Positions 595 to 43,316 of a stretch of DNA of 43,979 nucleotides are shown here, piece after piece. The number at the start of each line of letters is the position of its first letter. Positions within the stretch are counted from its first letter, which is position 1. The notes below the pieces were generated by a model. It saw only the letters and a program-made list of their open reading frames with translations. It was not told the DNA's origin and searched no databases. The DNA is from Gemmatimonadaceae bacterium (GTDB lineage Bacteria; Gemmatimonadota; Gemmatimonadetes; Gemmatimonadales; Gemmatimonadaceae): positions 1-43,979 of the forward strand of contig JADGQS010000009.1 in NCBI GenBank assembly GCA_017881585.1, given 5' to 3'. The position numbers were made by a program, and so were the translations under genes.

Positions 595-1908
595 GTGAAG
601 CTCCAGAAAACGCTGACGGGCACCGCGCTCGTGTTCGTGATGTTCTTCAACGTGTCCGGCGGGGCCTACACCACGGAGGGCCTCGCCGGTGCCGTTGGAC
701 CAGGACTCGCTTTGCTCGCCCTGTTGGTTGTACCGCTCGTGTGGTCGCTCCCGGAGACGCTGATCATCGGCGAGCTCGCCAGCATGCTGCCCGAAGAAGG
801 TGGCTACTACCGCTGGGTGCGCCGCGCGTTCGGCGAGTTCTGGGCCTTCCAGAACGGATGGGCGACGTGGCTGTACTCGCTCGTCGACATGGCGATCTAT
901 CCGGTGCTGTTCAGCCAGTACCTGCGCTGGTTCTTCCCGTCGCTCGGCGCCGGGAGCGCGTGGATCGTCTCGCTCGCGGTGATCTGGGGTGCGACGGCGA
1001 TCAACCTGCGCGGGGCGTTTCCGGTTGGGCGGGTGTCGATCTGGGCGGGATCGTTCGTGCTGCTGGGCTTCCTCGCGCTCGCGCTGTTCGCGATTCCGCA
1101 CGCGCAGCACGCGCCGTGGACGCCGTTCACGAATCCGGGCACGACGGTTCGCGCGGGACTTGCCGTGGGACTCTCGACCGCGCTCTGGAACTACATCGGG
1201 TGGGACAACGCGAGCACGGTGCAGGGCGAGGTGATCGACGCGTCGCGCAGCTACCCGCGCGCGCTGCTGGTAGCTCTGCCGCTCGTGACCCTCGGCTACT
1301 TCGTTCCGCTTCTTCCGGCGCTCGCGGCGAGTGATGGAAGCACGTGGCGGGATGGCTCGTGGCCCTCGATCGCGGCACATGTGACGGGCGGGGCAGGACC
1401 GTTCATCGCGGCGTGGATCGCGCTCGGCGGACTGGTGAGCGCCCTCGCGCTGTTCAACGCGCTGCTGCTCTCGTACTCGCGGATTCCGCTGGCGATGGCG
1501 GAGGATGGATTGCTGCCGAAGTCGCTCGCGCGGACCGATGCGCGTGGAACGCCGACGCGAGCAGTGCTGGTGTCCGCCGTGTTCTACTCCGTGTTCGTGC
1601 TCGTGCCGTTCGGCAAACTCGTGGTCGCGGATGTGCTGCTGTACGCGATCGCGTTGATGCTCGAGTTCGGCGCGCTGATCGCGCTGCGGCGGAGGGAGCC
1701 GGAGTTGCGGGGCGTGTTCAGGATCCCGGCGGGCGTCGGCGGGGTGACGGCGCTCGCCGCACTGCCGGCGATCGTGCTCGGAATCGTGATCTGGCTGTCA
1801 TTCAACGACGGAGACATCGCGCGGCCGTCGCTGATCGGCTCTGCGATCGGTCTCGCCTTGGGCCCGGTGCTGTATCTGCTCCTGCGCCGCCGTGACCGGA
1901 GCCAATAA
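595..1908 (+). CDS. APC-family amino acid permease
   Basis: Inner-membrane amino acid/polyamine-type transporter of about 437 residues with roughly 12 hydrophobic segments. The first, KTLTGTALVFVMFFNVSGG, carries the glycine-rich break typical of TM1 in the APC superfamily, and ELASMLPEEGGYYRWVRRAFG matches the conserved TM2-TM3 loop. I chose the GTG at 595 because it puts TM1 at the usual distance from the N terminus. The open frame continues upstream to base 25, but that part is the shadow of the homoserine kinase. The substrate cannot be told from sequence. The stop codon lies inside the first unit of a heptamer repeat (1902-1929). Confidence 0.85.
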   Translation: MKLQKTLTGTALVFVMFFNVSGGAYTTEGLAGAVGPGLALLALLVVPLVWSLPETLIIGELASMLPEEGGYYRWVRRAFGEFWAFQNGWATWLYSLVDMAIYPVLFSQYLRWFFPSLGAGSAWIVSLAVIWGATAINLRGAFPVGRVSIWAGSFVLLGFLALALFAIPHAQHAPWTPFTNPGTTVRAGLAVGLSTALWNYIGWDNASTVQGEVIDASRSYPRALLVALPLVTLGYFVPLLPALAASDGSTWRDGSWPSIAAHVTGGAGPFIAAWIALGGLVSALALFNALLLSYSRIPLAMAEDGLLPKSLARTDARGTPTRAVLVSAVFYSVFVLVPFGKLVVADVLLYAIALMLEFGALIALRRREPELRGVFRIPAGVGGVTALAALPAIVLGIVIWLSFNDGDIARPSLIGSAIGLALGPVLYLLLRRRDRSQ

Positions 1909-1946
1909 CCAATGACCAACGACCAACGACAGATTACTCGCCCCTA
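1902..1946. repeat. Heptamer repeat element H1, single arm
   Basis: Four consecutive seven-base units, CCAATAA, CCAATGA, CCAACGA and CCAACGA (1902-1929), are followed by CAGATTACTCG. The first unit contains the TAA stop of the upstream permease. The same words and the same 3' tail (GATTACTCG) recur in the right arm of the inverted repeat at 4474-4589, so the two are copies of one element family. It sits in a convergent junction. Confidence 0.8.
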
Positions 1947-1958
1947 AGTTCTCCTCCC

Positions 1959-4391
1959 TCACTCCCGCCGCAGCGCATCGACCGGATCGAGACCCGATGC
2001 CTTCCTCGACGGAATCCAGATGGCCAGCGCGGCGACGGCAATCAGCACGAGGGGAACGACGGCGAAAGTGACGATGTCGAATCCGCCGCTGCCATAGAGC
2101 TGGCTGCTCGCGAGTTTCGCGGCTCCGATCGCAAGTGCGAGCCCGATCCCGAGGCCCGCCGCCACCAGACCGAGCCCCTGACGCATCAGCAGGCGCACGA
2201 CGTCGCCGCGTCCCGCGCCGATCGCCATGCGAATCCCGATCTCCCGCGTCCGCTGCGCCACGGCGTACGCCATGACGCCGTAGATCCCGATCGCCGCGAG
2301 ACCGAGACCGAGCAGGCCGAAAATCCCGAGTACCGCGCCCGTGAGGCGCGCCGGGAACAGCGCGATGCCGAGGTGCGCCTCCATTGTGCGCACGTCGGAC
2401 AGGGGCATTTGCGCGTCGATCGCCGCCATCTCCGCGCGAAGGGTCGGGGCGAACGAGGCGGGATCTCCCGCGGTGCGGACCTGCACCCAGCGCCCGGCCG
2501 CAAAGTGCTGCTCCAGCGAGAGGTACATGTACGACGTCGGATCTTCGCCGAGCCGCCGGTACTTGCCGGTCGGCACGACGCCGATGACGACGTGATCGTT
2601 CCCGCCCGTGTGGACGGTGCGGCCGATCGCGTCCTGGCCCGGCCAGAAATGATCGGCGAAGTGCTGGTTGACGACGATCACCTTCTGCGCCGTGGAGTCG
2701 TCGCGCGTTTCGATGCCGCGTCCTTTTCGGATCGGGATTCCCATCGTGGCGAAATAGTCCGGGCCGATCTGGCTGACCTCGATGCTCATCATTTCGTTCG
2801 GCGAAGGCGTGTAGCCGGGAATGGTGACGCCCCAGTCGTTGTTCGAGAGCCCGAGCGGCATCAGCGTCGTCGTGGACACGTGGCGCACGGCGGGAAGCGC
2901 GGTCAGCCGTTCGTTCAGGCGGCGATAGAACTCCGCCGACCGCGCCCGGTCGTAGCCCTGCAGCGAAGGATCCACACTCGCGATCAGCAGGTGGCTGCTG
3001 TCGAATCCCTTCTCGATCGTCGTCGCCGCCTGGAGGTTGTGCAGGAAGAGTCCCGCGCACACGAGGAGCACGATCGACAGGGCCATCTGCGCGACGACGA
3101 GCCCGCTGCTCGCCCGTGCGCGCGACCGTCCGGCGGGCGCCTCGCCCTTCAGCGCCGGCACGAGCGACGGGTGCGTCGCCTGCAGCGCCGGCGCGATCCC
3201 GAACAGGATCCCGGTGAGGGCCGATGCGCCGAGCGTGAACAGCAGCACCTTCGGGCTGAGCCGCAAGTCGGGGCTGAACCCGATGTCGAACGGGATCTCG
3301 ATCCTGTTCGCGAGGCCGATCGCCCACTGCGCGACCGCGAGCGACGCGATCCCGGCGGCGGCGGCGAAGAAGAGGCTCTCGGTGAGCAACTGGCGGAGCA
3401 GCACGGAGCGTCGCGCACCGAGGCTCAGGCGAATCGCCATCTCGCGGGCGCGGTCGCGCGCGCGGGCCAGGAACAGGTTGGCGACGTTGACGCAGGCGAT
3501 GAGCAGGAGAATCGCGACGACCGCCATGACCACCGACGTGAGCCCGACCTCGGTGTTCCTGAACATCGGATGGACTCCCGCTTCGGGCTGCGGCACCATG
3601 GTGATCCCGCTCTGCTTGTAATCGTCAGGGTAGACCGCGTGAAGCTCCGAGACCAGGGCGTCCATGCGCGTGCGCGCCATCGCGGGCGTCACTCCGGGCT
3701 TGAGCCGCGCGATCATATCCATCGAATTGTTGTCGCGGTTCTCGTACCCCTTCACGTTGCCCGGGCGCGCGTCGCTCCACTGAGTGAGCGGAATCCAGAG
3801 CGAGGGCTGCACGATGGGCATGAGGCCCCGGAACTCGGCGGGCGCGATGCCGATGACCGAATAGCTGCGGCCGTTCAGCACGACCTTCCGGCCGATGATG
3901 TCCGGATCGCCGCCGAACATCGTCTTCCACGCCGGCTCGCTGACCACCACCACCGGATGCGCGTCGCGCCCGACGTCCTCCTCGGGGAGGAAGAACCGGC
4001 CCTTCAGCGGCTTCACGCCCAGGAGCGAGAAGAAGTTCGCCGACACCATCTGGCCGAAGGTGCGCTGCGGTCGGTTCGCGGCGGTGATGCTGAACAGTTC
4101 GAAGTCCGAGGCGGCGACGTCCGAGAACACGTCGGTCGCGCGCTCGCGGACGCTGAGAAAATGCGGGACCGAATTCGACCCGTACTTCATGTCGCCGGGC
4201 CACGAGCGATAGAGCTGCAGGAGCTCCTTCGGTGCGCGCACGCCGGGGAGCGGCCGGAGGAGCAGGGCGTCGACCGCGGAGAAGACCGCGGTGTTCAGCC
4301 CGATGCCGAGCGCGAGCGTGACGACGACGATGGCGGTGAAGCCCGGGTTCTTGATGAACAGGCGCCAAGCGAGTCGCAGGTCACGCAGCAT
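1959..4391 (-). CDS. ADOP-family ABC permease (MacB/FtsX-like, duplicated)
   Basis: Membrane permease of 810 residues in the family annotated as ABC transporter permease ADOP, built like two fused MacB/FtsX permeases. The N terminus (LAWRLFIKNPGFTAIVVVTL, residues 6-25) is typical. A periplasmic core domain follows (about 50-250), then FtsX helices near 290-400, a second periplasmic core (about 430-650) and final helices near 690-800. The end IPSRKASGLDPVDALRRE is the usual FtsX-type terminus. Such proteins are abundant in Acidobacteriota and Gemmatimonadota, often without an adjacent ATPase, and none is adjacent here. The substrate is unknown. The ATG at 4391 begins immediately before the conserved N-terminal motif. 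Confidence 0.9.
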   Translation of the reverse strand: MLRDLRLAWRLFIKNPGFTAIVVVTLALGIGLNTAVFSAVDALLLRPLPGVRAPKELLQLYRSWPGDMKYGSNSVPHFLSVRERATDVFSDVAASDFELFSITAANRPQRTFGQMVSANFFSLLGVKPLKGRFFLPEEDVGRDAHPVVVVSEPAWKTMFGGDPDIIGRKVVLNGRSYSVIGIAPAEFRGLMPIVQPSLWIPLTQWSDARPGNVKGYENRDNNSMDMIARLKPGVTPAMARTRMDALVSELHAVYPDDYKQSGITMVPQPEAGVHPMFRNTEVGLTSVVMAVVAILLLIACVNVANLFLARARDRAREMAIRLSLGARRSVLLRQLLTESLFFAAAAGIASLAVAQWAIGLANRIEIPFDIGFSPDLRLSPKVLLFTLGASALTGILFGIAPALQATHPSLVPALKGEAPAGRSRARASSGLVVAQMALSIVLLVCAGLFLHNLQAATTIEKGFDSSHLLIASVDPSLQGYDRARSAEFYRRLNERLTALPAVRHVSTTTLMPLGLSNNDWGVTIPGYTPSPNEMMSIEVSQIGPDYFATMGIPIRKGRGIETRDDSTAQKVIVVNQHFADHFWPGQDAIGRTVHTGGNDHVVIGVVPTGKYRRLGEDPTSYMYLSLEQHFAAGRWVQVRTAGDPASFAPTLRAEMAAIDAQMPLSDVRTMEAHLGIALFPARLTGAVLGIFGLLGLGLAAIGIYGVMAYAVAQRTREIGIRMAIGAGRGDVVRLLMRQGLGLVAAGLGIGLALAIGAAKLASSQLYGSGGFDIVTFAVVPLVLIAVAALAIWIPSRKASGLDPVDALRRE

Positions 4392-4473
4392 GGATTGGCT
4401 CGGTCGAGAGGGGTCGCTCTATGCTGGGACACTACGACCCGAGCCCATGGTTTGATTCAGCGCATCGAAACAG

Positions 4474-4589
4474 CGAGTAATCGGTCGTTGGTCATTGGTC
4501 GTTGGTAATTGGCCCGGCCACGAACCGTGCGAGGCGAATCGTGGCCGGGGCTAACTACCAATGACCAACGACCAACAACGGATTACTCG
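4474..4589. repeat. Heptamer repeat element H1, 50-bp inverted pair
   Basis: Two arms of about 50 bases (4474-4523 and 4539-4589) are imperfect reverse complements around a 15-base loop. Both start from CGAGTAATC, run through heptamers of the TCGTTGG/TCATTGG type (4485-4512 on the left) and end in a GC-rich CGGCCACGA stem base. The right arm ends 3 bases from the amidohydrolase stop codon, so it would form a large hairpin at that transcript's 3' end. No U-tract is seen. Confidence 0.85.
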
Positions 4590-4592
4590 TTC

Positions 4593-5912
4593 TTAAGGCC
4601 GCTTATACACGACCCCCGACTTCATCACGAACCTCACATTGCCCGCGCGGATCTTCGCGATGTCGCGCGTCGGATCCCCATCCACCGCGATCAGGTCCGC
4701 CCACAGCCCGACCTTCACCGCGCCCAGCCGGTTCTCGAGGTGCAGCACGCGCGCATCCACGCTCGTCGCGGCCTTGAGCGCCGCGGCGGGCGTCATGCCG
4801 TAGTTCACCAGCAACTCGATCTCGCGCGCGTTCTCGCCGTGCGTGAACACTCCGACGTCGCTGCCGTTGCAGATCCGCACGCCCGACTCGAGCGCGAGCT
4901 TGAACGACGCGCGCTTGCGCGTGATGCCCGCGGGTTCCGCGGTCACGCCCTTCTGCCAGCCTGAGTACTGGCTCGTCGCGTCGCCGGCCGCGAGGGTCGG
5001 GCAGAACGACACGTCGTGTTGCTTCATGAGCGCGAACACCTCCGCCGTGCCGGCGTCGCCGTGCTCGATGTCGTCGACGCCGGCCATCACCGCGCGGCGC
5101 ATGCCCTCGGCCGTCGTCGAATGCGCAACGACGTAGCGTCCGCTCGACTTCGCCGTCTCCACCATCACGCGCAGTTCCGCTTCGCTGAACGTCGGCATCG
5201 CCTCGCCGTTCGGGCCCCAGCGATAGTCGGCGTACACCTTGACCCAGTCGGCGCCGTGCGCGATCTGGTCGCGCGTCACGCGGATCACGTCCTCGGGCCC
5301 GTTCGCTTCTTCCGCGCCCTGAGCGGGCTCGAACGAGAAGTCGGTGCGCTTCGGCGCGTAGCTTCCGGTCGCGACGATCGCCCGCGTGACGACGTACATG
5401 CGCGGGCCGGGAATGACTCCCTGGTTCACCGCCTGCTTGAGGCCCACGTCCGCGTAGCCCGCGCCCTCGGTGCCGAGGTCGCGGATCGTCGTGAAGCCGG
5501 CCATCAGCGTGTTGCGCAGCGAGACGGTCGCCCGTGCGGTGCGAAGCGCGAGCGGCTCCTTCATGACCTGGTCGTTCCACTGCGCCTCGTTGTACGGATG
5601 GAGCAGCACGTGCGCATGTGCCTCGATCAATCCGGGAAGGAGCGTGGTGCCTGGAAGGTCGACCACCGTCGCGCCCGCGGGCGAGCCGACCTGACTCGCC
5701 GGGCCGACGGCGTCGATGCGGTCGCCGCGCACGAGCACCGTCCATCCCGCATGGGGCGTGTCGTCGATAGCGTCCCACACGGCGGCGGGTTTGAGCAGCA
5801 CGAGCGAGTCGCGCTGCGCACCGGCGGAGGCGCCCGGAGGGGCGGCGCGGCCGCGCTGTGCGAGCAATGCGGCCGGAAGCAGGAACGCCGCGGCGAACAG
5901 TGATTTCTTCAT
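4593..5912 (-). CDS. Secreted metal-dependent amidohydrolase
   Basis: Amidohydrolase-superfamily enzyme of 439 residues, predicted exported by a signal peptide ([19 protein letters not shown]). The metal site is complete: HxH in LIEAHAH (H99, H101), a likely carboxylated lysine in ADWVK (K225), H264 in VVAHS, H284 in DIEHG and D352 in NGSDVG. This set fits the imidazolonepropionase/prolidase-like branch, which hydrolyses amide or imide bonds. The natural substrate cannot be inferred. The ATG at 5912 overlaps the stop of the upstream DUF502 gene (ATGA), which suggests translational coupling. A hairpin repeat follows the stop codon. Confidence 0.88.
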
Positions 5913-6469
5913 GAGTCGCTGATCCTGGGAACCTCGGTGACACCGCCGGAAACGACGAACGCCATCACGTCGGACGAGACCGCATCGATGCGCGTGACGC
6001 GCGACGCGGGCACGATGATCGTGTTCCCGGCGAACGCGTACGACTGCGGGAAGTAGACGGCGACGGAATCGTGCAGTCCGAGCATCGCGAGCGATTCCTG
6101 CGTGATGAACCCGAACCCGCGCAGCGCGCCATCCGCCGAGAGCGTGACGATGACGGGCTTGTCGAAGCGCCGCTTCTCGCCGACGAACGCGTTCAGCAGG
6201 TCTTTCGTCGACGTGTAGAGCAGGCGGACGAACGGGAGCCGCTCGATGAGCTTCTCGAACCCGTCGACGAGCGGCTTGCTGAGGACGGTCGGTCCCAGGA
6301 ATCCGATCAGCGTGATCGCGCTGATGGTCGCGACGAAGCCGGCGCCCGGAATCGGCAGGTGCAGCCAGCTGTCGATGCGAACGAACACCCCGTAACACAC
6401 GTATCCCGTCACGACCGCGGGGACGGTGAGGATCAGGCCCTGCACGAAGTAGCGAAGGAGGCGCTTCAT
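5909..6469 (-). CDS. DUF502 family membrane protein
   Basis: Protein of 186 residues matching the DUF502 family, of unknown function. Two N-terminal hydrophobic segments are visible (about 8-30 and 40-62), followed by the family-typical stretch with [20 protein letters not shown] and a soluble C-terminal region ([26 protein letters not shown]). The ATG at 6469 begins directly before [11 protein letters not shown], and the longer open frame upstream is the antisense of the S9 peptidase gene. It is coupled by ATGA overlap to the amidohydrolase, so the two are probably co-expressed, and diverges from the peptidase gene across about 110 bases. Confidence 0.85.
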
Positions 6470-6578
6470 GCTTCCAAGATAGCTCGCCGTAGTTCTCGTC
6501 GCCCCTCGCTTAGCGTAAACCTCAGGGGCCGCGTATTGTAGCATGTCCCGACCAACATCACTCCCACTGGCCCGCCCC

Positions 6579-9533: not shown

Positions 9534-9708
9534 GCGACGGGTGAGGGGAACAACGGCGACGGGCGACAGGTGAGGGGCGATCTGGCGAAGAGCAATGAGC
9601 GACGGGTGAGAGGCGATCTGGCGAAGCGCGACGTGCAAGAAGCGAGGAGACGTTCCCCTCACTCCTCACACGTCGCGCTTCGCCGTAGTTCCCCTCACCC
9701 CTCGCGCT
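9534..9708. repeat. Heptamer repeat element H2 with inverted arms
   Basis: Fills the convergent junction between the peptidase and the cytochrome. It is made of variants of GAGCGAC, GGGTGAG, GGGCGAT and CTGGCGA. A perfect 16-base arm pair (GGCGAAGCGCGACGTG at 9620-9635, its complement at 9669-9684) extends imperfectly to 9598 and 9708. The right arm reaches into the stop codon of the cytochrome gene. The same words recur at 15921-16080. Confidence 0.85.
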
Positions 9709-10731: not shown

Positions 10732-10732
10732 A

Positions 10733-14571: not shown

Positions 14572-14573
14572 TC

Positions 14574-14657
14574 CGGCAGCTGGCGGGTGACGGCTGCCGT
14601 CTGGCAGTTTTCCTGCAACGCTCTCACCTGACAGCTATCAGCATCTAGCCGCCAGAC
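14574..14657. repeat. Heptamer repeat element H4, inverted arms
   Basis: Arms at 14574-14607 and 14628-14657 are degenerate reverse complements built on CTGGCAG/GGCAGCC-type words. The right arm reads in sevens (TGACAGC, TATCAGC, ATCTAGC, CGCCAGA). It lies between two same-strand genes. The match is weaker than in the other elements, but the words relate to those at 39665-39757. Confidence 0.55.
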
Positions 14658-14690
14658 AACGACTCGCCGACAATTCCGCGCACGGAGACC

Positions 14691-15914: not shown

Positions 15915-15920
15915 CCAACA

Positions 15921-16080
15921 GGAACGAGCGACAAGTGAGGGGCTTTCAAAACTGGGAACGAGCGACGCGTGAGGGGCGCCTTGGCGAAGAGCGACGCGTG
16001 AGGAGCGAAGAGACATTCTCCTCACCCATCGCGCGTCGCTCTTCCCAGATCGCCCCTCACCCGTCGCTCGTTGCTCTTCC
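15921..16080. repeat. Heptamer repeat element H2, second copy
   Basis: Inverted arms of about 50 bases (15957-16005 and 16018-16072) in a convergent junction, preceded by an extra direct copy beginning near 15921. Words are GAGCGAC, GCGTGAG and GGGCGCC followed by TTGGCGAAGAGCGAC. It shares the consensus GAGCGACGGGTGAGGGGCGA with the element at 9534-9708. Confidence 0.85.
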
Positions 16081-16109
16081 AGCCGATTCGAGCGTTAGGT
16101 TTCAGAGCC

Positions 16110-17404: not shown

Positions 17405-17410
17405 TGGGAA

Positions 17411-17521
17411 CGATCGAAGATGGAAGATGGAAGATCGAACGCGCGCGGTCGACGTGGGAAGAATACTATCATTCACCGCTGATGTCTCGTCCTTCCATCT
17501 TCCATCTTCGATCTTCCATCC
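17411..17521. repeat. Heptamer repeat element H3 flanking a divergent promoter region
   Basis: The left arm (about 17415-17437) reads CGAAGAT, GGAAGAT, GGAAGAT; the right arm (17491-17521) is the complement, TTCCATC-type units. The 50-base core between them holds TACTAT (17464-17469), a plausible -10 for the + strand, overlapping TAGTAT on the minus strand. Each arm would lie in the 5' leader of one divergent gene, within a few bases of its start codon. Confidence 0.75.
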
Positions 17522-17525
17522 TGAC

Positions 17526-26194: not shown

Positions 26195-26267
26195 GGGGCG
26201 TTAGCTCAGCTGGGAGAGCGCTGCCTTTGCAAGGCAGAGGTCGTGGGTTCGATCCCCACACGCTCCA
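26195..26267 (+). tRNA. tRNA-Ala (anticodon UGC)
   Basis: A 73-base cloverleaf. Acceptor arms GGGGCGT (26195-26201) and ACGCTCC (26260-26266) pair with one G-U; the D arm has TAGCTCAGCTGGGAGAGC, the anticodon stem is CTGCC/GGCAG with TGC at 26228-26230, and the T arm holds GGTTCGATCC. The discriminator is A26267, and CCA is not encoded. It lies between actF and ccmA, close to both, on the same strand. Confidence 0.97.
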
Positions 26268-34495: not shown

Positions 34496-34599
34496 CACTG
34501 GCGCATGTCGGACGGACGTGCGCCAACACTCGGTCCTCCACCGCTCGCACCGTTCGGTCATCTTGTCCGGCGAACGCCGCGCGCGTACCTTGACGCACC

Positions 34600-36171: not shown

Positions 36172-37544
36172 CCGGCAAACAGCCGATCCGCGTCCTCATC
36201 GCCGAGGACGAAGCCAATCTCGGCGAACTGCTCCAGAGCTATCTCGCGGGCCGCGGCCACAAAGTCACGGTGACGCTCGACGGGCGTGCCGCGCTCGACG
36301 CCCTCCACTCGCAGCCGTTCGACGTCGCGCTCCTCGACATCGTGATGCCGAAACTCGACGGCCTCGAGGTGCTGCGCCAGGTGCGCGAGAATCCCTCGCC
36401 GCCCGAGTGCATCATCATCACCGGCAACGGCACGGTCGACACGGCGATCGCCGCGATGAAGCTCGGCGCGTACGACTACGTCTCGAAGCCGTATCGCCTG
36501 GCCGAGATCGACGTGCTCGTGCGGCGCGCGTGGGAGAAGCGGAGGCTCACGAGCGACAACCTGCGGCTCAGCACGCGGCTCTCGCGTGTCGATGCCGCAC
36601 GCGATTTCACCTCGGTGTACGCGCCCATGCAGGCCGTGCTCGCGCTCGCGCGGCATGCGGCGCTGGGCGAGGCGCCGGTGCTGATCACGGGCGAACCCGG
36701 CACGGGCAAGAACGAGCTCGCGCGCTACATCCACGCGCACTCGTCGCGCACCACGGGCCCGCTCGTGGACGCGGTCTGCGCCGCGATGACCAGGGGCCAC
36801 GCCGCGGTCGACCTGTTCGGCATGGAACGTCCTAAGGACGACGAGCCGTCGGGCGGAGTGACGGCGGCGATCGGGCTGGTCGAATCCGCGGCCGGCGGCA
36901 CGCTCGTGCTCGACGACGTGCAGCTGCTCGATCCGCCAGCGCAGGCCGCGCTCGCGGAAACGCTGGCGGAAGGATCGTTCCGGCGGGTGGGCTCGCAGCA
37001 CCGGATCGAGACCGAAGCGCGATTCATCGCGACCGCCGGAGCGGACCTCCCCGCGGCGGTGCGCGCCGGATCGTTCCGCGCCGACCTGTTCGATTCGCTT
37101 GGCCACGTCAGCATCGCGCTGCCGCCGCTCCGCGAGCGCTCGGTGGACATCGCGATCCTCGCGCAGGCGTTTGTGCGTGAGTTCGGCGGGCTGAGGGGGC
37201 CGTCGCTGGCCTCCGAGGCCATTGAAGCACTGCAGGATTATTCGTGGCCCGGAAACCTCCGGGAGCTGCGCAACGTGCTCGAGCGCGCGGTGCTGCTCGC
37301 GGGCGGCGGGATCATCCACGCGCACGACCTGCCGCTCCCGGCGGCGGTGCGCTCCGGTTCGTCCGCGGACGATGCGCCGCTCGCGCTGCAGGAAGTCGAG
37401 CGCCGCCACATCGCGGCCGTGCTGCAGCGCACCAGCTGGCACCAGGGCAAGGCCGCGAGCCTCCTCGGCATCTCGGCGAAGACCCTCTACCGGAAGATTC
37501 GCGAGTACCGCTTCGAGCGGCCGGCTGGTGTCGGAGCCCCGTGA
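36168..37544 (+). CDS. NtrC-like response regulator with degenerate AAA+ domain
   Basis: Regulator of 458 residues: receiver (D57 in LLDIVMP, K107 in SKPY), AAA+ domain (about 145-380) and Fis-type helix-turn-helix (HQGKAASLLGISAKTLYRKI, 425-444). The AAA+ part is eroded: Walker A is GEPGTGKN instead of GESGTGKE, Walker B ends DD instead of DE, ATN is ATA, and the sigma-54-contact loop GAFTGA aligns with GGVTAA (229-234) after a charged insert. The arginine-finger region FRADL and LPPLRER remain. It probably regulates without sigma-54. Start GTG at 36168 is coupled to the kinase gene. Confidence 0.88.
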   Translation: MTGKQPIRVLIAEDEANLGELLQSYLAGRGHKVTVTLDGRAALDALHSQPFDVALLDIVMPKLDGLEVLRQVRENPSPPECIIITGNGTVDTAIAAMKLGAYDYVSKPYRLAEIDVLVRRAWEKRRLTSDNLRLSTRLSRVDAARDFTSVYAPMQAVLALARHAALGEAPVLITGEPGTGKNELARYIHAHSSRTTGPLVDAVCAAMTRGHAAVDLFGMERPKDDEPSGGVTAAIGLVESAAGGTLVLDDVQLLDPPAQAALAETLAEGSFRRVGSQHRIETEARFIATAGADLPAAVRAGSFRADLFDSLGHVSIALPPLRERSVDIAILAQAFVREFGGLRGPSLASEAIEALQDYSWPGNLRELRNVLERAVLLAGGGIIHAHDLPLPAAVRSGSSADDAPLALQEVERRHIAAVLQRTSWHQGKAASLLGISAKTLYRKIREYRFERPAGVGAP

Positions 37545-38209
37545 GAGTCCTCGTGATCGAGGACGACCCGACGGTCGGACAGTTCGTGAAGCGCGGGCTC
37601 GAGGAACAGCGCTGGAGCGTGGATCTCGTCGCCGACGGTGAGGAGGGTGAGTCGCTCGCGCGCAGCCAGCCGTACGATCTCGTCGTGCTCGACATGCGGC
37701 TGCCCGGGCGGTCGGGGCTCGAGGTGCTGCGCAATCTCAGGGCGCGCGGATTCGAGCGTCCGGTGCTCGTGCTCACGGCGCAGGACGCCGTCGACGCGAA
37801 GGTCGAGACGCTGCGGGCCGGCGCCGACGACTACGTCACCAAGCCGTTCGCGTTCGAGGAACTGCTCGCCAGAATCGAAGCACTCGCGCGCCGCCCGCGC
37901 GTGCTCGCCACGCCGGTCCTGAAGGTCGCCGACCTCGAGGTCGACCTCGACGCGCGCGAAGTGCGCCGCGGCGGTGTGCTCGTGGAACTCACGCCGAAGG
38001 AGTTCCTCGTCCTCGAGTACCTCTGCCGCCACAAGGGCCGCGTGATGAGTCGCACGCTGATCACCGAATACGCGTGGGGCTACCACTTCGATCCCGGCAC
38101 GAATATCGTGGACGTCGTGATCAACCACCTGCGCAAGAAGATCGACTCCGGGAAGGGAAAGAGGATGATCACGACGGTGCGCGGCGTGGGTTACGTGATC
38201 AAGGAGTAG
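37541..38209 (+). CDS. OmpR/PhoB-family response regulator
   Basis: Regulator of 222 residues: receiver domain with D51 (VVLDMRLPG) and K in VTKPF, then a winged-helix DNA-binding domain (about 125-222) with the typical LTPKEFLVLEYLCRHKGRVMSR and IVDVVINHLRKKID recognition region. Start is GTG at 37541, overlapping the NtrC-like stop by 4 bases. The kinase that follows 13 bases later is its likely partner. A candidate binding site of the OmpR type lies at 39766-39798 upstream of tonB. Confidence 0.92.
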   Translation: MRVLVIEDDPTVGQFVKRGLEEQRWSVDLVADGEEGESLARSQPYDLVVLDMRLPGRSGLEVLRNLRARGFERPVLVLTAQDAVDAKVETLRAGADDYVTKPFAFEELLARIEALARRPRVLATPVLKVADLEVDLDAREVRRGGVLVELTPKEFLVLEYLCRHKGRVMSRTLITEYAWGYHFDPGTNIVDVVINHLRKKIDSGKGKRMITTVRGVGYVIKE

Positions 38210-38222
38210 GGGGCGACAGCGC

Positions 38223-39698
38223 ATGGCATCGATCCGCACGCGCATCACCGCGAGCTACGCGCTCGCGTTCGCGGGGACGATGTTCGCGTTCTCCGCCGTG
38301 GTGTGGGCGGAGCGCCGCGACGTGGCGCAGCAGGACCTTCGCGATCGCGCGATCACCGTCGCCGATCTCGGCATCCGGATCCTCCGCCAGGCCGGCGTCG
38401 GGAACGAGTCGATGACGATCCGGACCGACTCGCTCATCGGTCGCGAACTCACGACGCGCTACAAGGCACAGCTCGACGTGCTCCCGGGATACGTGATCAT
38501 CGGCGACGCGACGCACGCGGTGTACGAGTCGCCCGCCGTTCGCGCGCTCAGCGAAAAGGACTCCACGAACCTCACGGCCGCCGCGTTCAGCCTGACCGTG
38601 AAGACGGACGCGCTCGTGGACCTCGACGACGAGCGCACGCAGATCCTGCTCGTCGTGCGCTTCGATTCGCTCTCGGCTCCGCCGTCCGTGCGCCGCGTCG
38701 TTGCGGGCGTATCGACTCAGCCGCTCGCCATCGCGGGCGCGCAGGTGCTGTTCCTCTCGTTCGTCGTCGCGCCGATCATCCTGCTGATCTCGGCCGTCAC
38801 GGCGTGGACGCTCGCCGGCCGCATGCTGCAGCCGATCGACCAGATGGTGAACGACGTCGAGGCGATCAGCGACGGGCGCTCGCTGCATCGCAGAATTCCC
38901 GTCGAGGACCTGGGCGACGAAATCGGCCGCCTCGGCACGACACTCAACGCGATGATCGGCCGCCTCGAGACGAGCTTCGCCGCCCTCCGCCGGTTCACCG
39001 CCGACGCCAGCCACGAACTGAAAACCCCGCTCACGGTTCTCCGCGCGGATATCGAACGGGCGATGACCACCCGGCAGGGCAGCACCGACCAGCTCGTCGC
39101 GCTCGAAGAAGGCCTGCAGGAAACCACCCGCATGGCCGACCTCGTGGAATCCCTTCTCACGCTGGCGCGCGCCGACGAAGGCCGGTTCGACCTGCATCGC
39201 GAGCCCGTCGAGATGGAACCACTCGTGCGGGAGGTCGTCGAGACCGCGAATATCCTCGGCGAGGCGGCCGGCATTCTGGTCTCGGTGCCGGTCCTGCAGC
39301 ACGTGACCGTCCTCGGCGACCGCGTCCGCCTCCGCCAGCTTTTCCTGAATCTCGTGACGAACGCGATCAAGTACACCGCGAAAGGCGGCAAGGTCGAGCT
39401 CACCCTCGAATCCACCGACGGCGGGGCGGTCTTCACGGTGAAGGACACGGGCATCGGAATAGCCGGCGCCGATCTCCCGTTCATTTTCGAGCGTTTTTGG
39501 CGCGTCGACCGCGTGCGATCACGTGGCGGCGAGCGAGGGGGCGTGGGCCTCGGCCTCGCGATTTCGCAATGGATCGCCCAGGCCCACGGCGGGTCGATCA
39601 ATGTCGCTTCGAGACTGGGTCGCGGCAGCAGTTTTGCGGTGACCATTCCTGCACTTCCGATCGCGGACGGCAGTCGGCAGACGACGGACGGCGGTTAA
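38223..39698 (+). CDS. Membrane sensor histidine kinase (EnvZ/CusS-like)
   Basis: Kinase of 491 residues with two transmembrane helices (about 10-29 and 172-197) around a periplasmic sensor domain, then HAMP (about 198-250) and the kinase core. The phosphoacceptor is H264 in ASHELKTPLTVL. The N box (LVTNAIKYTAKGG), DTGIGI, FWRVDRVRS and GVGLGLAIS are in place. It is the expected partner of the OmpR-like regulator just upstream. The last residues (ADGSRQTTDGG) are encoded by a heptamer repeat arm, so the original stop may have been displaced. Confidence 0.92.
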   Translation: MASIRTRITASYALAFAGTMFAFSAVVWAERRDVAQQDLRDRAITVADLGIRILRQAGVGNESMTIRTDSLIGRELTTRYKAQLDVLPGYVIIGDATHAVYESPAVRALSEKDSTNLTAAAFSLTVKTDALVDLDDERTQILLVVRFDSLSAPPSVRRVVAGVSTQPLAIAGAQVLFLSFVVAPIILLISAVTAWTLAGRMLQPIDQMVNDVEAISDGRSLHRRIPVEDLGDEIGRLGTTLNAMIGRLETSFAALRRFTADASHELKTPLTVLRADIERAMTTRQGSTDQLVALEEGLQETTRMADLVESLLTLARADEGRFDLHREPVEMEPLVREVVETANILGEAAGILVSVPVLQHVTVLGDRVRLRQLFLNLVTNAIKYTAKGGKVELTLESTDGGAVFTVKDTGIGIAGADLPFIFERFWRVDRVRSRGGERGGVGLGLAISQWIAQAHGGSINVASRLGRGSSFAVTIPALPIADGSRQTTDGG

Positions 39699-39757
39699 CT
39701 GCCCTCCGCTGTCCGCCGTCCCAACTGCAGTCCGTCTTCTGCCGTCTGCCGACCGAC
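39665..39757. repeat. Heptamer repeat element H4, copy overlapping a gene end
   Basis: The left arm (39665-39694: GGCAGTC, GGCAGAC, GACGGAC) lies within the last codons of the kinase gene. The right arm (39711-39757: CCGCCGT, CCCAACT, GCAGTCC, GTCTTCT, GCCGTCT, GCCGACC) lies beyond the stop. The arms are imperfect reverse complements around a loop of about 17 bases. No U-tract follows. Confidence 0.75.
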
Positions 39758-39765
39758 TTCAAGTT

Positions 39766-39798
39766 CTAACTTCGCGTTAAGCGAATCTTAATGAAAAT
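39766..39798 (+). promoter_or_regulatory. Triple 11-bp direct repeat, OmpR-type binding site candidate
   Basis: Three successive 11-base units begin CTAAC, TTAAG and TTAAT at 39766, 39777 and 39788 (CTAACTTCGCG, TTAAGCGAATC, TTAATGAAAAT). One-helical-turn spacing of direct half-sites is the rule for OmpR/PhoB winged-helix dimers, and TTAA-N7-TTAA equals the spacing known for CtrA. It lies about 90 bases before tonB and after the operon that encodes an OmpR-type regulator. TTCGC-N5-GCGAA is superimposed. Confidence 0.45.
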
Positions 39799-39886
39799 CC
39801 CTATCGACGGCGTGTATGGAACAATAGGTTCTCTCCCATCGCACCCGCTCGCAGTCCGAGTCCACCAGTAAGACGGGGTACGGACA

Positions 39887-40576
39887 TTGTTCAACAACCT
39901 GCTCGAGTCCAAGGCTAAAAAGCAGAAGTCGCCTGGCGGCATGGTCGTCAGCGCGATCCTCCACGTGCTCGTGATCTTCCTTGCCATTCAGGCCACGCTG
40001 AACGCGGGCCAGAAGAAGGAGAAGCGCGAGGAGAAGGTCGACTTCGTCGAAGTCAAGAAAGACGAGCCGCCTCCGCCGAAGGAGAAGGCGCCCGAGGTCA
40101 TGGTGGCGCCTCCGCCGAAGGGGTTCCAGACGCTCACCGCTCCGGTGAACATTCCCGACGTCCTCCCCGACATCGACCTCAGCAAGAAGGTCACGAACGA
40201 GGCGGACTTCACGGGCAAGGGCGTGGCGGGCGGCCGCGAGAAGGGCATCGTCGGCGCTGCTCCGGTCGAGAACCAGACCTACTTCGAGTACCAGGTGGAA
40301 AAGCCGGTGATGGCCGTCAATGGCTCTCCGACGCCGCGTTACCCGGACATCCTGAAGTCGGCTGGCGTCGAGGGCGAAGTGGTCGTCGCGTTCGTGGTGG
40401 ACACCACGGGCCGCGCCGACGTCTCGTCGCTCAAGATCCTCAAGTCGACCCACGAACTGTTTTCCGCGGCGGTGAGGACGGCGCTCCCCACCATGCGTTT
40501 CCTCCCGGCCGAGGTGGGCGGAAAGAAAGTGAAGCAGCTGGTGCAGCAGCCGTTCGTGTTCAACATCATCAAGTAA
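39887..40576 (+). CDS. tonB: TonB energy transducer
   Basis: TonB-family protein of 229 residues that transmits proton-motive force to outer-membrane receptors. One N-terminal helix (MVVSAILHVLVIFLAIQATL, 19-38) is followed by a Lys/Glu/Pro-rich spacer (KKDEPPPPKEKAPEV) and a TonB C-terminal domain (about 140-229) with PRYPDILKSAGVEGEVVVAFVVD. Start is TTG at 39887, which preserves the cytosolic residues before the helix; GTG/ATG alternatives would remove them. The gene heads the tonB-exbB-exbD-exbD run. Confidence 0.88.
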   Translation: MFNNLLESKAKKQKSPGGMVVSAILHVLVIFLAIQATLNAGQKKEKREEKVDFVEVKKDEPPPPKEKAPEVMVAPPPKGFQTLTAPVNIPDVLPDIDLSKKVTNEADFTGKGVAGGREKGIVGAAPVENQTYFEYQVEKPVMAVNGSPTPRYPDILKSAGVEGEVVVAFVVDTTGRADVSSLKILKSTHELFSAAVRTALPTMRFLPAEVGGKKVKQLVQQPFVFNIIK

Positions 40577-40622
40577 CCCGCGTTACCCCGCGCCTTTCAT
40601 TTCACGCGTCAGGAGCTGAGAA

Positions 40623-41360
40623 ATGCAGATTTCATTGACCCAGATGTTCGCTTCGATGGGCGGCTTTGCGAAGGGCATCGTGTATACGCTGCTCGTGATG
40701 TCGCTATACTCGCTCACGATCATGATCTCCAAGTGGTTCTACCTGCGTTCCGCGCAGGCGCAGACCCGCAAGTTCGCGCCCGAGTTCTCGCAGTTCCTCG
40801 AGGAGGACAACCTCACGGAAGCGATCAACCTGGCGCAGAGCTACAAGAAGTCGCACGTCGCCCGTGTGCTCGGCAACGCCCTCGCTGAAATCAAGCCGCT
40901 GATCCAGGACGGTTCGGTGACGGTCGCCGACATCAACTCGGCGGAGCGCGCGGTCGAGCGCGAAATGCTGATGACGATCGTGCTCATCAAGCGCGGGCTG
41001 GGCGTGCTGGCGACGGTCGGCGCGACGGCTCCGTTCGTCGGACTTCTCGGAACCACGATGGGTATCGTCAACGCCTTCGAAGGCATGGCGGCGGGCGGCG
41101 GCGGATCGATCAGCTCGATCGGCGCTGGCGTCGCGGAAGCACTGATCACGACGGCGTTCGGTCTTCTCGTCGCAATCCCGGCGGTGTGGGCGTACAACTA
41201 TTTCCAGACGAAGGTCGACAACATCACGGCGGAAATGACCTACTCGTCGAAGGAAATGATCGACTACTTGATCAAGGGTGTGTCCGGTGAGTTCGGCCGC
41301 TCGCGCTTCACGCGTGAGTTCAACACGGCCGCGCAGAACGCCGGCAAGTCTGCGGTCTGA
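40623..41360 (+). CDS. exbB: ExbB/TolQ-family proton channel protein
   Basis: Inner-membrane MotA/TolQ/ExbB protein of 245 residues with three helices (about 17-37, 121-147 and 165-190). IKRGLGVLATVGATAPFVGLLGTTMGIVNAFEGMA and ALITTAFGLLVAIPAVWAYNYF are conserved channel segments. It forms the pentameric proton channel with ExbD that powers TonB. The ATG at 40623 follows AGGAG. Confidence 0.93.
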   Translation: MQISLTQMFASMGGFAKGIVYTLLVMSLYSLTIMISKWFYLRSAQAQTRKFAPEFSQFLEEDNLTEAINLAQSYKKSHVARVLGNALAEIKPLIQDGSVTVADINSAERAVEREMLMTIVLIKRGLGVLATVGATAPFVGLLGTTMGIVNAFEGMAAGGGGSISSIGAGVAEALITTAFGLLVAIPAVWAYNYFQTKVDNITAEMTYSSKEMIDYLIKGVSGEFGRSRFTREFNTAAQNAGKSAV

Positions 41361-41394
41361 GCTGACCCCCCTCGCAGCATAAGGAGCACTTCCG

Positions 41395-41871
41395 ATGTCG
41401 ATGTCCATGGGAGGGGGCGGTGTAAAGGCGGAGCCGAACGTCACGCCGATGATCGACGTGATGCTCGTGCTGCTGATCATCTTCATGATCGTCATCCCCG
41501 CACTGAATGCCGGCTTCAACGCGATTCCCCCGCAGGCACAGAACCTCAAGCCGCACCCCGAGGAAGAGCAGGATCAGGTGCTCGGAATCGACAAGGACGG
41601 CCAGTACTACCTGAACAAGAAAGCGCTGCCAAACGCGGATCTCGGTGACAAGCTCAAGGAGATCTACGACCGCCGCACGGCCGATAAGATCATGTATGTA
41701 AAGGCGCACAAGGAGCTGAAGTACGAAAAGGTCATCGACGCAATCGACGTCGCCGCGCATTCCGGCGTGCGCGTGGCCGGCATGATCTCCGATCCGATCC
41801 CGGGCACGAAGTCGACGGTTGAAGGCGACAACGTGCTGCAGGAAGGCATGAAGAAGGGAGGGAAGCCCTAA
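41395..41871 (+). CDS. exbD: ExbD/TolR-family protein, first copy
   Basis: Biopolymer transporter of 158 residues. The short cytoplasmic start leads to PNVTPMIDVMLVLLIIFMIV, the single helix with the proton-carrying aspartate (MID). The periplasmic domain (about 60-150) has KDGQYYLNKKAL and a C-terminal extension longer than in the second copy. The ATG at 41395 follows AAGGAG. The stop shares one base with the next gene. Confidence 0.92.
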   Translation: MSMSMGGGGVKAEPNVTPMIDVMLVLLIIFMIVIPALNAGFNAIPPQAQNLKPHPEEEQDQVLGIDKDGQYYLNKKALPNADLGDKLKEIYDRRTADKIMYVKAHKELKYEKVIDAIDVAAHSGVRVAGMISDPIPGTKSTVEGDNVLQEGMKKGGKP

Positions 41872-42287
41872 TGGCGATGTCAGCAGGCGGCAATGAAGGG
41901 CTCAAGAACGAGCCCAACGTCACGCCGATGATCGACGTGCTCCTCGTGCTGCTCATCATCTTCATGATGATCATCCCGCTGAGCCGGAAGGCCATCGACG
42001 TACAGCTTCCCGATCCGACGCCGACGAAGGAACCGCCGAACGCGAAGCCCGACCAGATCGTGCTCGAGGTGCTCCCCGGTCCGACGTTCGCTATCAACAA
42101 GGCGCCGGTAGACAAGGCGAACCTCGGTGCGCGGTTGAAAGAGATCTACGATCCGCGTCCGGTGAAGATCATGTTCCTCAAAGGCGATCCGGAAGTCACC
42201 TATCAGGATGTGATTTTCGCGATGGACCAGGCGCGCGGCGCCGGCGTGAAGGCCATCGCCACGGTGCCTAAGGGTGCGGCGAAGTAG
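41871..42287 (+). CDS. exbD2: ExbD/TolR-family protein, second copy
   Basis: Second biopolymer transporter of 138 residues, paralogous to the first (PNVTPMIDVLLVLLIIFMMII with the conserved aspartate) but divergent in its periplasmic part (RKAIDVQLPDPTPTKEPPNAKPD). Two unequal ExbDs in one operon are frequent in Bacteroidota and related phyla, where they may form a mixed pair within one ExbB pentamer. Start overlaps the first copy (TAATG). A 16-bp stem-loop lies after the stop. Confidence 0.9.
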   Translation: MAMSAGGNEGLKNEPNVTPMIDVLLVLLIIFMMIIPLSRKAIDVQLPDPTPTKEPPNAKPDQIVLEVLPGPTFAINKAPVDKANLGARLKEIYDPRPVKIMFLKGDPEVTYQDVIFAMDQARGAGVKAIATVPKGAAK

Positions 42288-42315
42288 AAAAGATCAGCGG
42301 TTCTTTCAGGAAGTG

Positions 42316-42353
42316 ATGCGACGGACGAACCTTTTGGGGTTCGTCCGTCGTAT
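42316..42353 (+). terminator. Stem-loop after exbD2
   Basis: ATGCGACGGACGAACC (42316-42331) pairs with 42338-42353 through 16 base pairs including one G-U, around the loop TTTTGG. It is the most stable simple hairpin in the window. No U-tract follows (CATTAGGGG), so it may attenuate, terminate without a U-tract or stabilise the upstream mRNA. The next gene starts 12 bases later. Confidence 0.6.
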
Positions 42354-42364
42354 CATTAGGGGAC

Positions 42365-43177
42365 ATGACGCCAGGAACCTTTGATCGAGAATCCCGTGAG
42401 CGGCCGCGGTATCGCGGCCCGGTGGGAATGCCGCTCCCGAAGCAGTCCAGCTTCGGGGGCTCGTTGGGGTCCCTCCTGGTCCACCTGCTGATCATTCTGT
42501 TGCTCATCGGTCCGTGGTGGGCGACGAACGTGATAGAGCAGAAGATGGGCGGAGGCGGTCCCGGCCCCGCCGGCGGCGGTGGCGGCGGCAACAACGGCTC
42601 CGGCGGAGTGGTGCAGGAGCGCACGCGTTTCGTGCAAGTCCAGCCGCCCACGCCTCCTCCGCAAGTGAAGCAGCCGCAACTCGTGGTGCCGCCGGTCATC
42701 AGGCCGCCGCCGCCGGAACAGCCGAAGCCCGAGCCGCCCAAGGCTACGCCCGCACCCCAAGCAACGAAGGACGCGAGCCAGGTGATCGGCACGGGCGGCG
42801 GCACGGGTCACGATGGCACGGCCGGCAACGGCCCAGGCACGGGCGGCGGCGTCGGCTCGGGTGACGGCACCGGCCGCGGATCCGCGAATGGCCCCGGTAC
42901 GGGCGGTGGAGCGGGGCGAACCTACCCGCCGACGGTCACGAACCTGGCCATCCTCCCGATCCCTGTCCCCTCCAAGGTCCGTCCGTACAAACTCATCGCC
43001 TATTTCGATGTCGACGAGAGGGGGAACACGACTCTTCTGCGCTGGAATGCGTCGCCGGACCGAGACTACAACAGGAAGATCGAGGCGATGCTGAAGGAAG
43101 TGCGGTTCCGTCCGGCCGTGAAGTGGGACGGCACGCCGGTTCGCGACACGACCTGGATTACTGCGGAGGCTCCATAG
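42365..43177 (+). CDS. TonB-like protein with Pro- and Gly-rich linkers
   Basis: Protein of 270 residues. One helix (LGSLLVHLLIILLLIGPWWA, about 34-53) leads to a periplasmic region: a Gly-rich stretch (61-80), a Pro-rich segment (about 91-128, with PPTPPPQVKQPQ and PPPPEQPKPEPP), a second Gly/Thr-rich stretch (about 139-184) and a C-terminal domain resembling TonB_C (KLIAYFDVDERGNTTLLRWN, VRFRPAVKWDGTPVRDT). It is likely a second energy transducer or periplasmic adaptor using the same ExbBDD motor. Start ATG at 42365 is just after the stem-loop. The function as TonB is inferred. Confidence 0.75.
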   Translation: MTPGTFDRESRERPRYRGPVGMPLPKQSSFGGSLGSLLVHLLIILLLIGPWWATNVIEQKMGGGGPGPAGGGGGGNNGSGGVVQERTRFVQVQPPTPPPQVKQPQLVVPPVIRPPPPEQPKPEPPKATPAPQATKDASQVIGTGGGTGHDGTAGNGPGTGGGVGSGDGTGRGSANGPGTGGGAGRTYPPTVTNLAILPIPVPSKVRPYKLIAYFDVDERGNTTLLRWNASPDRDYNRKIEAMLKEVRFRPAVKWDGTPVRDTTWITAEAP

Positions 43178-43202
43178 GGCTTTAGGGTCTGCGCGCGCGG
43201 TC

Positions 43203-43316
43203 GGGCTCGGTGGTATCGCTGCGTCGGGCTCCGCTCGTTTAACGCTTCGAGCCGCGCGCTGCGCACGCGAATCTCTCGCTACTCGCTAAGCCCGCCTCCG
43301 CGACACCACCGAGCCC
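43203..43316. repeat. Large inverted repeat (possible heptamer element H5)
   Basis: Arms at 43203-43230 and 43289-43316 are reverse complements with few mismatches; the outer 16 bases (GGGCTCGGTGGTATCG) differ at one position. The 58-base interior contains a smaller GCTCG/CGAGC hairpin and a perfect tandem CTCGCTA CTCGCTA (43275-43288) immediately next to the right arm. It occupies much of the 278-base gap between the TonB-like gene and the second permease; I see no gene in that gap. Confidence 0.65.

What the first reader, a model, noticed from the sequence alone, without database searches (positions are those of the whole stretch)
1902..43316. A class of intergenic elements built on seven-base periodicity with inverted arms
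Sites at 1902, 4474, 9534, 14574, 15921, 17411 and 39665, and probably 43203, share an architecture (period 7, imperfect inverted arms, short core) but use at least four unrelated words: CCAACGA, GGGTGAG/GAGCGAC, GGAAGAT and GGCAGAC. All three convergent junctions in the window carry one. Period 7 excludes coding. Heptanucleotide tandem repeats (STRR) are known in cyanobacteria, but I know of no such inverted, multi-word class in this kind of genome. They could be terminators, RNA structures or relics of a copying process.
Basis: seen in the sequence. Interest (0 to 1): 0.75.

Follow-up and report, generated by a model that had tools for sequence, protein, structure and literature searches.

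The report
Seven-base-repeat hairpins at gene ends
This bacterium ends many of its genes with hairpins built from seven-letter repeats, and in a sister species a hairpin is often found at the same gene end with a quite different sequence.

Summary
The class is real, but not every listed site belongs. Of the 8 sites, 7 show a lag-7 signal above dinucleotide shuffles and 6 a significant inverted repeat; 5 have both. 1902 is one-armed, 14574 weak, 43203 a different dispersed element. In 950 kb, lag-7 places number 131 against 15-28 at five control lags; in 623 kb picked mainly by contig number, 80 against 10-16.

Heptad regions fold far better than shuffles, favour convergent junctions, and in tandem junctions lie nearer the upstream stop codon (31 of 34). 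All 49 inverted elements found, over about seven word families, have the G-rich arm first.

In sister genome G011 all 4 comparable convergent junctions also carry hairpins, with dissimilar sequence, though one pair keeps related arms. One element kept loop and flank while both arms changed word. Two gene ends followed through 18 genomes mostly kept hairpins.

Best reading: gene-end hairpins, probably terminators or end protectors, grown by 7-nt slippage and fold-back copying. Function and mechanism are inferred. Inverted heptamers are published for Xanthomonas and mixed heptamers for cyanobacteria, so this is a new variant of a known kind.

The parts
1902..1940 (.). one-armed CCAAYGA heptad relic between convergent genes; no hairpin
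   Evidence: lag-7 p 0.002, IR p 0.93; G011 has a full composite inverted repeat here
4474..4589 (.). CCAAYGA / GGTnnTT element: arms 4474-4515 and 4548-4589 around a GC-rich core hairpin, close behind the stop of the - strand gene at 4593-5912
   Evidence: arms; IR p 0.002, fold z -12.5; G011 keeps the outer ends with both arms changed
9534..9706 (.). GGGTGAG/GAGCGAC element between convergent genes
   Evidence: lag-7 p 0.006, IR p 0.002, fold z -6.2. In G011 the next gene is missing here, so the junction is not comparable
14574..14690 (.). weak element (GGCAGCT/CTGACAG-like) between tandem genes
   Evidence: lag-7 p 0.002 but IR p 0.06, fold z -0.8; absent in G011
15915..16095 (.). GAGCGAC/GGGTGAG element between convergent genes (Na/H exchanger-like and superoxide dismutase); main arms 15957-15978 and 16051-16072
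   Evidence: (IR p 0.002, fold z -7.6), arms, genes; unrelated inverted repeat in G011
17405..17525 (.). GGAAGAT element between divergent genes; arms 17407-17438 and 17487-17517
   Evidence: (lag-7 and IR p 0.002, fold z -8.4), arms; shared with G011 with changed unit content
39664..39755 (.). GGCAGAC/GGACGGC element; arms 39664-39696 and 39723-39755; the left arm overlaps the 3' end of the histidine kinase gene
   Evidence: (lag-7 and IR p 0.002, fold z -4.9), arms; shared with G011, which is 7 nt shorter here
43190..43322 (.). not a member: dispersed inverted-repeat element without period 7
   Evidence: lag-7 p 0.18, IR p 0.002; related copies in G011

Best explanation
These are gene-end hairpins. 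Shown: they concentrate behind stop codons and at convergent junctions, fold much better than shuffles, and a hairpin at a given gene end is usually present in relatives although its sequence often differs. Inferred function: they act in RNA as (often bidirectional) transcription terminators or as barriers that protect transcript 3' ends. Inferred growth and turnover: one arm gains, loses or changes units by 7-nt slippage; the imperfect palindrome then folds back so that one arm templates the other (quasipalindrome template switching) and both arms come to share the new word; selection keeps the hairpin at 3' ends and removes it from promoters and coding sequence. A GC-rich terminator hairpin may be the seed around which heptad arms grow, since several elements have such a core.
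For: Heptad regions: median fold z -5.7 convergent (n 21) and -4.0 tandem (n 32), against -0.5 (n 132) and -0.1 (n 56) in tandem and divergent regions without heptads. Convergent 23 of 59, tandem 40 of 243, divergent 14 of 99 regions carry lag-7 arrays. 31 of 34 tandem elements lie nearer the upstream stop. Orthologous junctions with G011: 4 of 4 convergent have hairpins in both genomes, all with similarity below 0.5. L048 10091: right flank 50 of 50 and loop 66 of 90 aligned bases identical, yet the arms read GGAAGAT in G000 and GGCAGAC in G011. 7-nt length differences between orthologous elements. Hairpins (z at most -2.5) at the SOD junction in 13 of 15 scored genomes and at the 3' end of the 6579-9533 gene in 14 of 17 scored, against 3 of 15 on the 5' side of the SOD-junction genes.
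Against: No transcript data. U-tracts are weak: 5 of 22 convergent perfect stems have T in at least 5 of 10 bases. At L048 10091 a fully conserved canonical terminator stands next to the element, so the heptad hairpin need not be the terminator there. 11 of 72 inverted elements lie between genes called divergent, and 17411 is kept in G011. In the less biased sample the convergent excess is weaker: 12 of 35 against 11 of 64 divergent, p 0.08, and 26 of 161 tandem, p 0.019. Arms of one GGTnnTT element match each other only slightly better than swapped arms (0.772 against 0.743, p 0.005) and a 7-nt shift fits as well (0.787 against 0.769), so exact arm-to-arm copying is not visible there. At one gene end GGGTGAG-type heptads recur in three species, so words are not always replaced. 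No spacer inversion, the mark of template switching, was found or systematically sought.
Confidence: 0.5

Rival explanations
1. Neutral by-product: heptad palindromes arise by slippage and fold-back copying, do nothing, and survive mainly behind stop codons because coding and promoter regions reject them.
For: Rapid turnover between sister genomes; patchy abundance within the genus; a canonical terminator next to one element; some single arms without partner (48 of 117 arrays).
Against: Convergent junctions without heptads carry hairpins too (median z -4.3, n 17), and gene ends keep hairpins across the genus, so a hairpin there seems wanted; heptad hairpins may simply supply it.
Confidence: 0.3
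2. Mobile palindromes of the MITE or REPIN kind, spread by a transposase acting in trans; the shared outer ends of the GGTnnTT family (CGAGTAATC...GATTACTCG) would be terminal repeats.
For: 32 GGTnnTT elements with similar outer ends in G000 and G011 stretches; presence and absence between sister genomes.
Against: Unrelated words share one architecture and one polarity; no Y1_Tnp match in G000 or G011 (G000 about 90% complete); unit-wise 7-nt length changes; no common terminus across families.
Confidence: 0.1
3. G-quadruplex elements: each G-rich arm folds on its own, and the inverted partner is secondary.
For: Most words contain GG or longer once per heptad and the G-rich arm comes first; G4 formation of GGGAATC oligonucleotides was shown in vitro (PMC4692102, abstract and discussion read).
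Against: Several main words have only GG per unit, two-tier at best; the CTGACAG and ACTCAGT arrays have no G-run; 69 of 117 arrays have an inverted partner against 4 in the reversed control.
Confidence: 0.05

Closest known systems
GGGAATC heptameric repeats of Xanthomonas and GGGGA(C/T)T of Nostoc (Rehm et al. 2015, PMC4692102; abstract, passages and two sections read)
   Same: Heptamers, intergenic, close to stop codons, scarce between divergent genes, variable unit number; in Xanthomonas 70 and 75 pairs in convergent orientation that can form hairpins
   Different: One G4-forming word per genome studied there; here several unrelated words in one genome, all inverted elements with the G-rich arm first, and different hairpin sequences at orthologous gene ends
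TAACTGA and other heptamers of Beggiatoaceae and cyanobacteria (MacGregor 2015, PMC4679880; abstract and one section read)
   Same: Heptamer arrays, in Microcystis often mixed with other heptamers; indels in 7-nt steps between Cyanothece strains
   Different: Direct repeats (one indirect set in the Beggiatoaceae genome), there mostly just upstream of start codons
Intrinsic terminators, including hairpin clusters without poly-U (PMC8355165; abstract and one section read)
   Same: Hairpins close behind stop codons; GC-rich core in several elements
   Different: Heptad arms of 30-40 nt; weak U-tracts; termination untested
Template switching between inverted-repeat arms (PMC8604942; abstract and passages read)
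   Same: Makes the two arms of an inverted repeat alike
   Different: Reported there for short arms in yeast genes; here whole arms of about 30 nt would be rewritten, and spacer inversion was not seen

Membership tests
Heptameric tandem repeats (STRR / heptameric SSR kind) | Tandem units of 7 nt above chance | tested here: met
   131 places against 15-28 at control lags; 80 against 10-16
Heptameric tandem repeats (STRR / heptameric SSR kind) | Mostly intergenic | tested here: met
   49 of 131 lag-7 places are mostly coding, the rest mainly noncoding, with about 8% of the sequence noncoding
Heptameric tandem repeats (STRR / heptameric SSR kind) | Unit-number changes in 7-nt steps between relatives | tested here: met
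   39665 and L080/L123 differ by 7 nt from their G011 counterparts; two cases
Xanthomonas-type inverted heptamers | Arms in convergent orientation and scarcity between divergent genes | tested here: met
   G-rich arm first in 49 of 49; 14 of 99 divergent against 23 of 59 convergent regions, weaker. The paper's own polarity was read from its text, not recomputed
Xanthomonas-type inverted heptamers | Four consecutive runs of three or more G (G4) | tested here: not met
   Several main words (GGTnnTT, GGAAGAT, GGCAGAC, GGAAGCC) have only GG per unit
Intrinsic transcription terminator | Stable hairpin close behind the stop codon | tested here: met
   Fold z; median 9.5 nt behind the upstream stop in tandem junctions
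Intrinsic transcription terminator | U-tract behind the stem | tested here: inconclusive
   T 0.23-0.36 at the 12 positions behind the elements against 0.19 in intergenic DNA; T-rich tail behind 5 of 22 convergent perfect stems
Intrinsic transcription terminator | RNA 3' ends at the site | not testable with these tools
   No transcriptome available here
REP / REPIN with RAYT | Y1 transposase (TnpA_REP type) in the genome | tested here: not met
   No PF01797 match in G000 or G011; 2 of 21 genomes match
REP / REPIN with RAYT | GTAG or CGTC tag at one end (abstract of PMC3733652, listing only) | not tested
   -
MITE | Terminal inverted repeats with target-site duplication | tested here: inconclusive
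   Shared outer ends only within the GGTnnTT family; duplications not systematically sought
Rfam families | Match at the gathering score | tested here: not met
   Only a tRNA at 26195-26267 in the window

The most novel reading that the evidence does not exclude
A self-renewing class of gene-end hairpins: the hairpin is kept at a junction while its sequence is rewritten, both arms together, by 7-nt slippage plus fold-back copying, under a polarity rule (G-rich arm first) shared by unrelated words. Function would be conserved with almost no sequence conservation, and the same process could underlie inverted heptad repeats in several phyla.
Probability: 0.35. Interest if true: 0.75.

Novelty: new variant of a known kind. 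Interest (0 to 1): 0.55.

Why it matters
Heptameric repeats are over-represented in many bacteria, yet the authors of PMC4692102 conclude that a functional role remains to be elucidated. This genome offers a testable link: heptads as material of gene-end hairpins. If arms really change in concert, gene-end hairpins can be conserved in place without conserved sequence, and searches by sequence similarity would miss them. The polarity rule (49 of 49) is a sharp constraint on any mechanism. The sister pair G000/G011 and the patchy word distribution in the genus make the origin of words open to direct study with closer strains.

Tried and rejected
Loss of mismatch repair or of the palindrome nuclease as the cause of the amplification: MutS_I matches are present in G000 and G011, and SbcD-like matches in all 61 genomes, although only 4 of 61, not G000 or G011, pass the SbcD cut-off. 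REP/RAYT: no Y1_Tnp in G000 or G011. A shared terminal motif AACnGCGA: 2.3-fold enriched in noncoding DNA, not a common terminus. A general rule of five fixed plus two variable bases: strong in GGTnnTT (mean consensus frequency 0.89-0.97 at five phases, 0.65 and 0.46 at two), but over arrays the two most variable phases are adjacent in 33 of 78 (G000, p 0.06), 17 of 44 (G011, p 0.28), 3 of 7 (G036, p 0.43), 39 of 86 (cyanobacterial loci, p 0.014) and 20 of 43 (others, p 0.05), with 1 in 3 expected. Strict covariation of arms: weak (of 32 elements found, 28 were used, with the ortholog copy in L123 and three without both anchors dropped). One search used an open frame at 4603-5943 that is a shadow frame (Pfam gave 0 families; relatives show stops inside); it was not used further.

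Limits. The gene caller is home-made and unvalidated; two small calls at 5937-6395 are probably spurious and a tRNA in L058 was not called. Sampling bias: the own stretches L041-L050, L075, L076, L079-L081 and L090 came from contigs known to carry the CCAACGA word, and the G011 and G036 stretches likewise. One search repeats the main counts on 44 stretches chosen mainly by contig number (C4 and C9 left out; rest of C1, C6, C24 and C37 added for length); the window is not in it.
Full report
What was checked. I tested each site, sampled 950 kb in 61 stretches, window included, and compared with a sister genome (G011, about 92% identical over aligned parts), other genus members, and named loci from other phyla.

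The observation. Seven of the 8 sites have a lag-7 signal above dinucleotide shuffles, 6 a significant inverted repeat, 5 both. 1902 is one arm only, 14574 has weak arms, 43203 has no period 7. Over 950 kb there are 131 lag-7 places (28-base windows with at least 18 matches) against 28, 15, 24, 22 and 17 at lags 5, 8, 10, 11 and 13; 49 of the 131 are mostly coding. In 623 kb chosen mainly by contig number: 80, against 10-16 at lags 4, 5, 8, 10, 11, 13, 16 and 17, with 55 at the harmonic lag 14.

The class. Words in inverted elements fall into about seven families: GGTnnTT (= CCAAnGA), GGAAGAT/GGAAGAC, GGCAGAC, GGGTGAG/GAGCGAC, GGATGCG, GGGGAGT and GGAAGCC; CTGACAG and ACTCAGT arrays also occur. 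Of 117 arrays, 69 have an inverted partner within 200 bp, against 4 in a reversed control. In all 49 inverted elements of G000 the G-rich arm is the 5' arm (two of the 49 lie in called genes); likewise 23 of 23 in G011 and 6 of 6 in G036; 1 to 2 in G001, G006 and G014 together, 27 to 6 in cyanobacterial loci and 9 to 5 in other phyla. Elements of one word are not independent, but all seven families follow the rule. Counted by region on predicted RNA folds the rule is less strict: heptad regions 17 to 3 (convergent), 26 to 4 (tandem) and 7 to 3 (divergent); strong hairpins without heptads 12 to 1 (convergent) and 10 to 4 (tandem); poorly folding tandem regions 38 to 39, convergent 4 to 3, divergent 27 to 13. 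Several elements have a GC-rich core hairpin inside the arms, and some convergent junctions carry composite inverted repeats without heptads.

Place. Regions with a lag-7 score of at least 18: convergent 23 of 59, tandem 40 of 243, divergent 14 of 99; other lags tried give 0-4 per class apart from the harmonic 14 (10, 27 and 8). Fisher p 0.0008 against divergent and 0.0003 against tandem. In the less biased stretches 12 of 35, 26 of 161 and 11 of 64, p 0.08 and 0.019. Of 72 inverted elements in G000 and G011, 34 lie in tandem, 19 in convergent and 11 in divergent junctions, 6 at stretch ends and 2 in called genes; 31 of the 34 tandem ones are nearer the upstream stop (median 9.5 nt) than the next start (median 79.5 nt). 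In cyanobacterial loci 16 of 24 and in other phyla 5 of 9 tandem elements are nearer the stop.

Folding. For intergenic regions of 50-350 nt (30 shuffles each), median RNA z: with heptads -5.7 convergent (n 21), -4.0 tandem (n 32), -2.0 divergent (n 10); with weak lag-7 signal -7.3 (n 8), 0.6 (n 13) and 0.5 (n 4); without -4.3 (n 17), -0.5 (n 132) and -0.1 (n 56). Convergent junctions thus tend to carry hairpins anyway, and heptad arms are one way to build them.

Turnover between sister species. Of 60 orthologous junctions with G011, all 4 convergent ones have hairpins in both genomes with similarity below 0.5; scores for pairing across genomes are 5, 8, 21 and 40 against 34, 15, 66 and 50 within G000, so the last pair (L087 11575) still has related arms. 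Of 44 tandem junctions 10 (G000) and 12 (G011) have hairpins, 8 in both, 4 of those dissimilar, one of which is the non-heptad element at 43190. Of 12 divergent ones 1 and 2, one shared. Two of the 13 shared cases (L062 5274, L070 4546) look like missed genes. At the SOD junction G000 has GAGCGAC heptads while G011 has a CACGGATTTACACGG repeat with a GGGGGAACGGCAAC core. At 1902 G011 has a full composite repeat where G000 has one arm; at 4474 both arms differ while the outer ends match; at 39665 the element is shared but 7 nt shorter in G011; 14574 is absent in G011. At L048 10091 the loop is 66 of 90 aligned bases identical and the right flank 50 of 50, yet both arms read GGAAGAT in G000 and GGCAGAC in G011; that flank holds a canonical terminator. 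Arrays mixing these two words exist, so a path between them is visible.

Across the genus. At the SOD junction the hairpin z is at most -2.5 in 13 of 15 scored genomes of 18 (G012 and G010 miss; G007 had no gene called at the right place, G002 has a 15-nt gap, G013 has Ns); on the 5' side of the same genes in 3 of 15 scored. At the 3' end of the 6579-9533 gene (looks like an S9-type peptidase, untested) 14 of 17 scored of 18. Sequences at the SOD junction range from plain GC hairpins to heptads of other words. At the second gene end GGGTGAG-type heptads recur in G000, G002 and G005, so words are not always replaced. The amplification is local: the two commonest words are abundant only in G000 and G011 of 18 genus members, with CCAACGA arrays also in G036 of the family. 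In 542 kb of 14 other genus members there are 8 noncoding lag-7 places against a mean of 2.8 at five control lags; some of those contigs were chosen because they carried the SOD or neighbouring gene.

How it most likely works. Hairpins are kept in place more than in sequence, which points to a structural role at transcript ends. Termination or end protection is the natural reading but is not shown; U-tracts are weak, though PMC8355165 reports that poly-U is not necessary. The paired change of arms is best explained by one arm templating the other during replication, a known process for inverted repeats (PMC8604942). Within the GGTnnTT family arms match each other only slightly better than swapped arms (0.772 against 0.743, p 0.005) and a 7-nt shift fits as well, so copying is at most occasional: arms share the word, not the order of units. 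Why the unit is 7 is unknown; PMC4692102 cites a proposal that it reflects the DNA segment at the polymerase active site.

What is known. PMC4692102 (abstract, passages, two sections read) describes GGGAATC heptamers in Xanthomonas, with 70 and 75 pairs in convergent orientation, scarcity between divergent genes and closeness to stop codons. PMC4679880 (abstract, one section read) describes mixed heptamers in Microcystis and 7-nt indels between Cyanothece strains. Passages of PMC13289151 and PMC4060949 were also seen. Nine searches of the paper library listed no title or abstract start that describes a multi-word inverted heptad class in this kind of genome, the polarity rule or paired word switching; only the top 7-25 papers of each search were listed, and most subscription papers and all preprints are missing from that library. 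The finding is therefore rated a new variant of a known kind.

Noticed in passing
window 43190-43322; L282, L038: A dispersed inverted-repeat element of about 130 nt without period 7; G011 has two related copies at this junction, one inverted, and L038 of the own genome shares an exact 23-base stretch with L282.
   Followed up: partly
L086 3355-3502, L058 6835-7010, G011 L158: Composite inverted repeats with CACGGATTT-type outer arms and a core of TTGGGGGAAC...GTTCCCCCAA at convergent junctions.
   Followed up: no
L043 14018-14235, L043 4259-4473, L047 3538-3721: Another composite inverted repeat: outer arms AACAAAGGGGATGAGTTA..., core CGGCGACGGGACCGGTCG with T-rich tail.
   Followed up: no
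window 39664-39698: The left arm of the element makes up the last codons of the histidine kinase gene, so the element supplies a protein tail.
   Followed up: no
L347, 3' end of the orthologous gene in G014: Arms of GTCTnnn / AGACnnn units (four fixed, three variable bases) around a perfect core hairpin with A and T tails.
   Followed up: no
L345, L348, L360: GGGTGAG-type heptads at the same gene end in G000, G002 and G005 although the G002 and G005 proteins are only 82% and 50% identical to the query: inheritance or repeated origin.
   Followed up: no
L139, L140 (G036, same family): A genome with very dense heptad repeats: 14 noncoding places in 40 kb of contigs chosen for the CCAACGA word.
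   Followed up: no
window 26195-26267: tRNA gene, the only Rfam match in the window.
   Followed up: no
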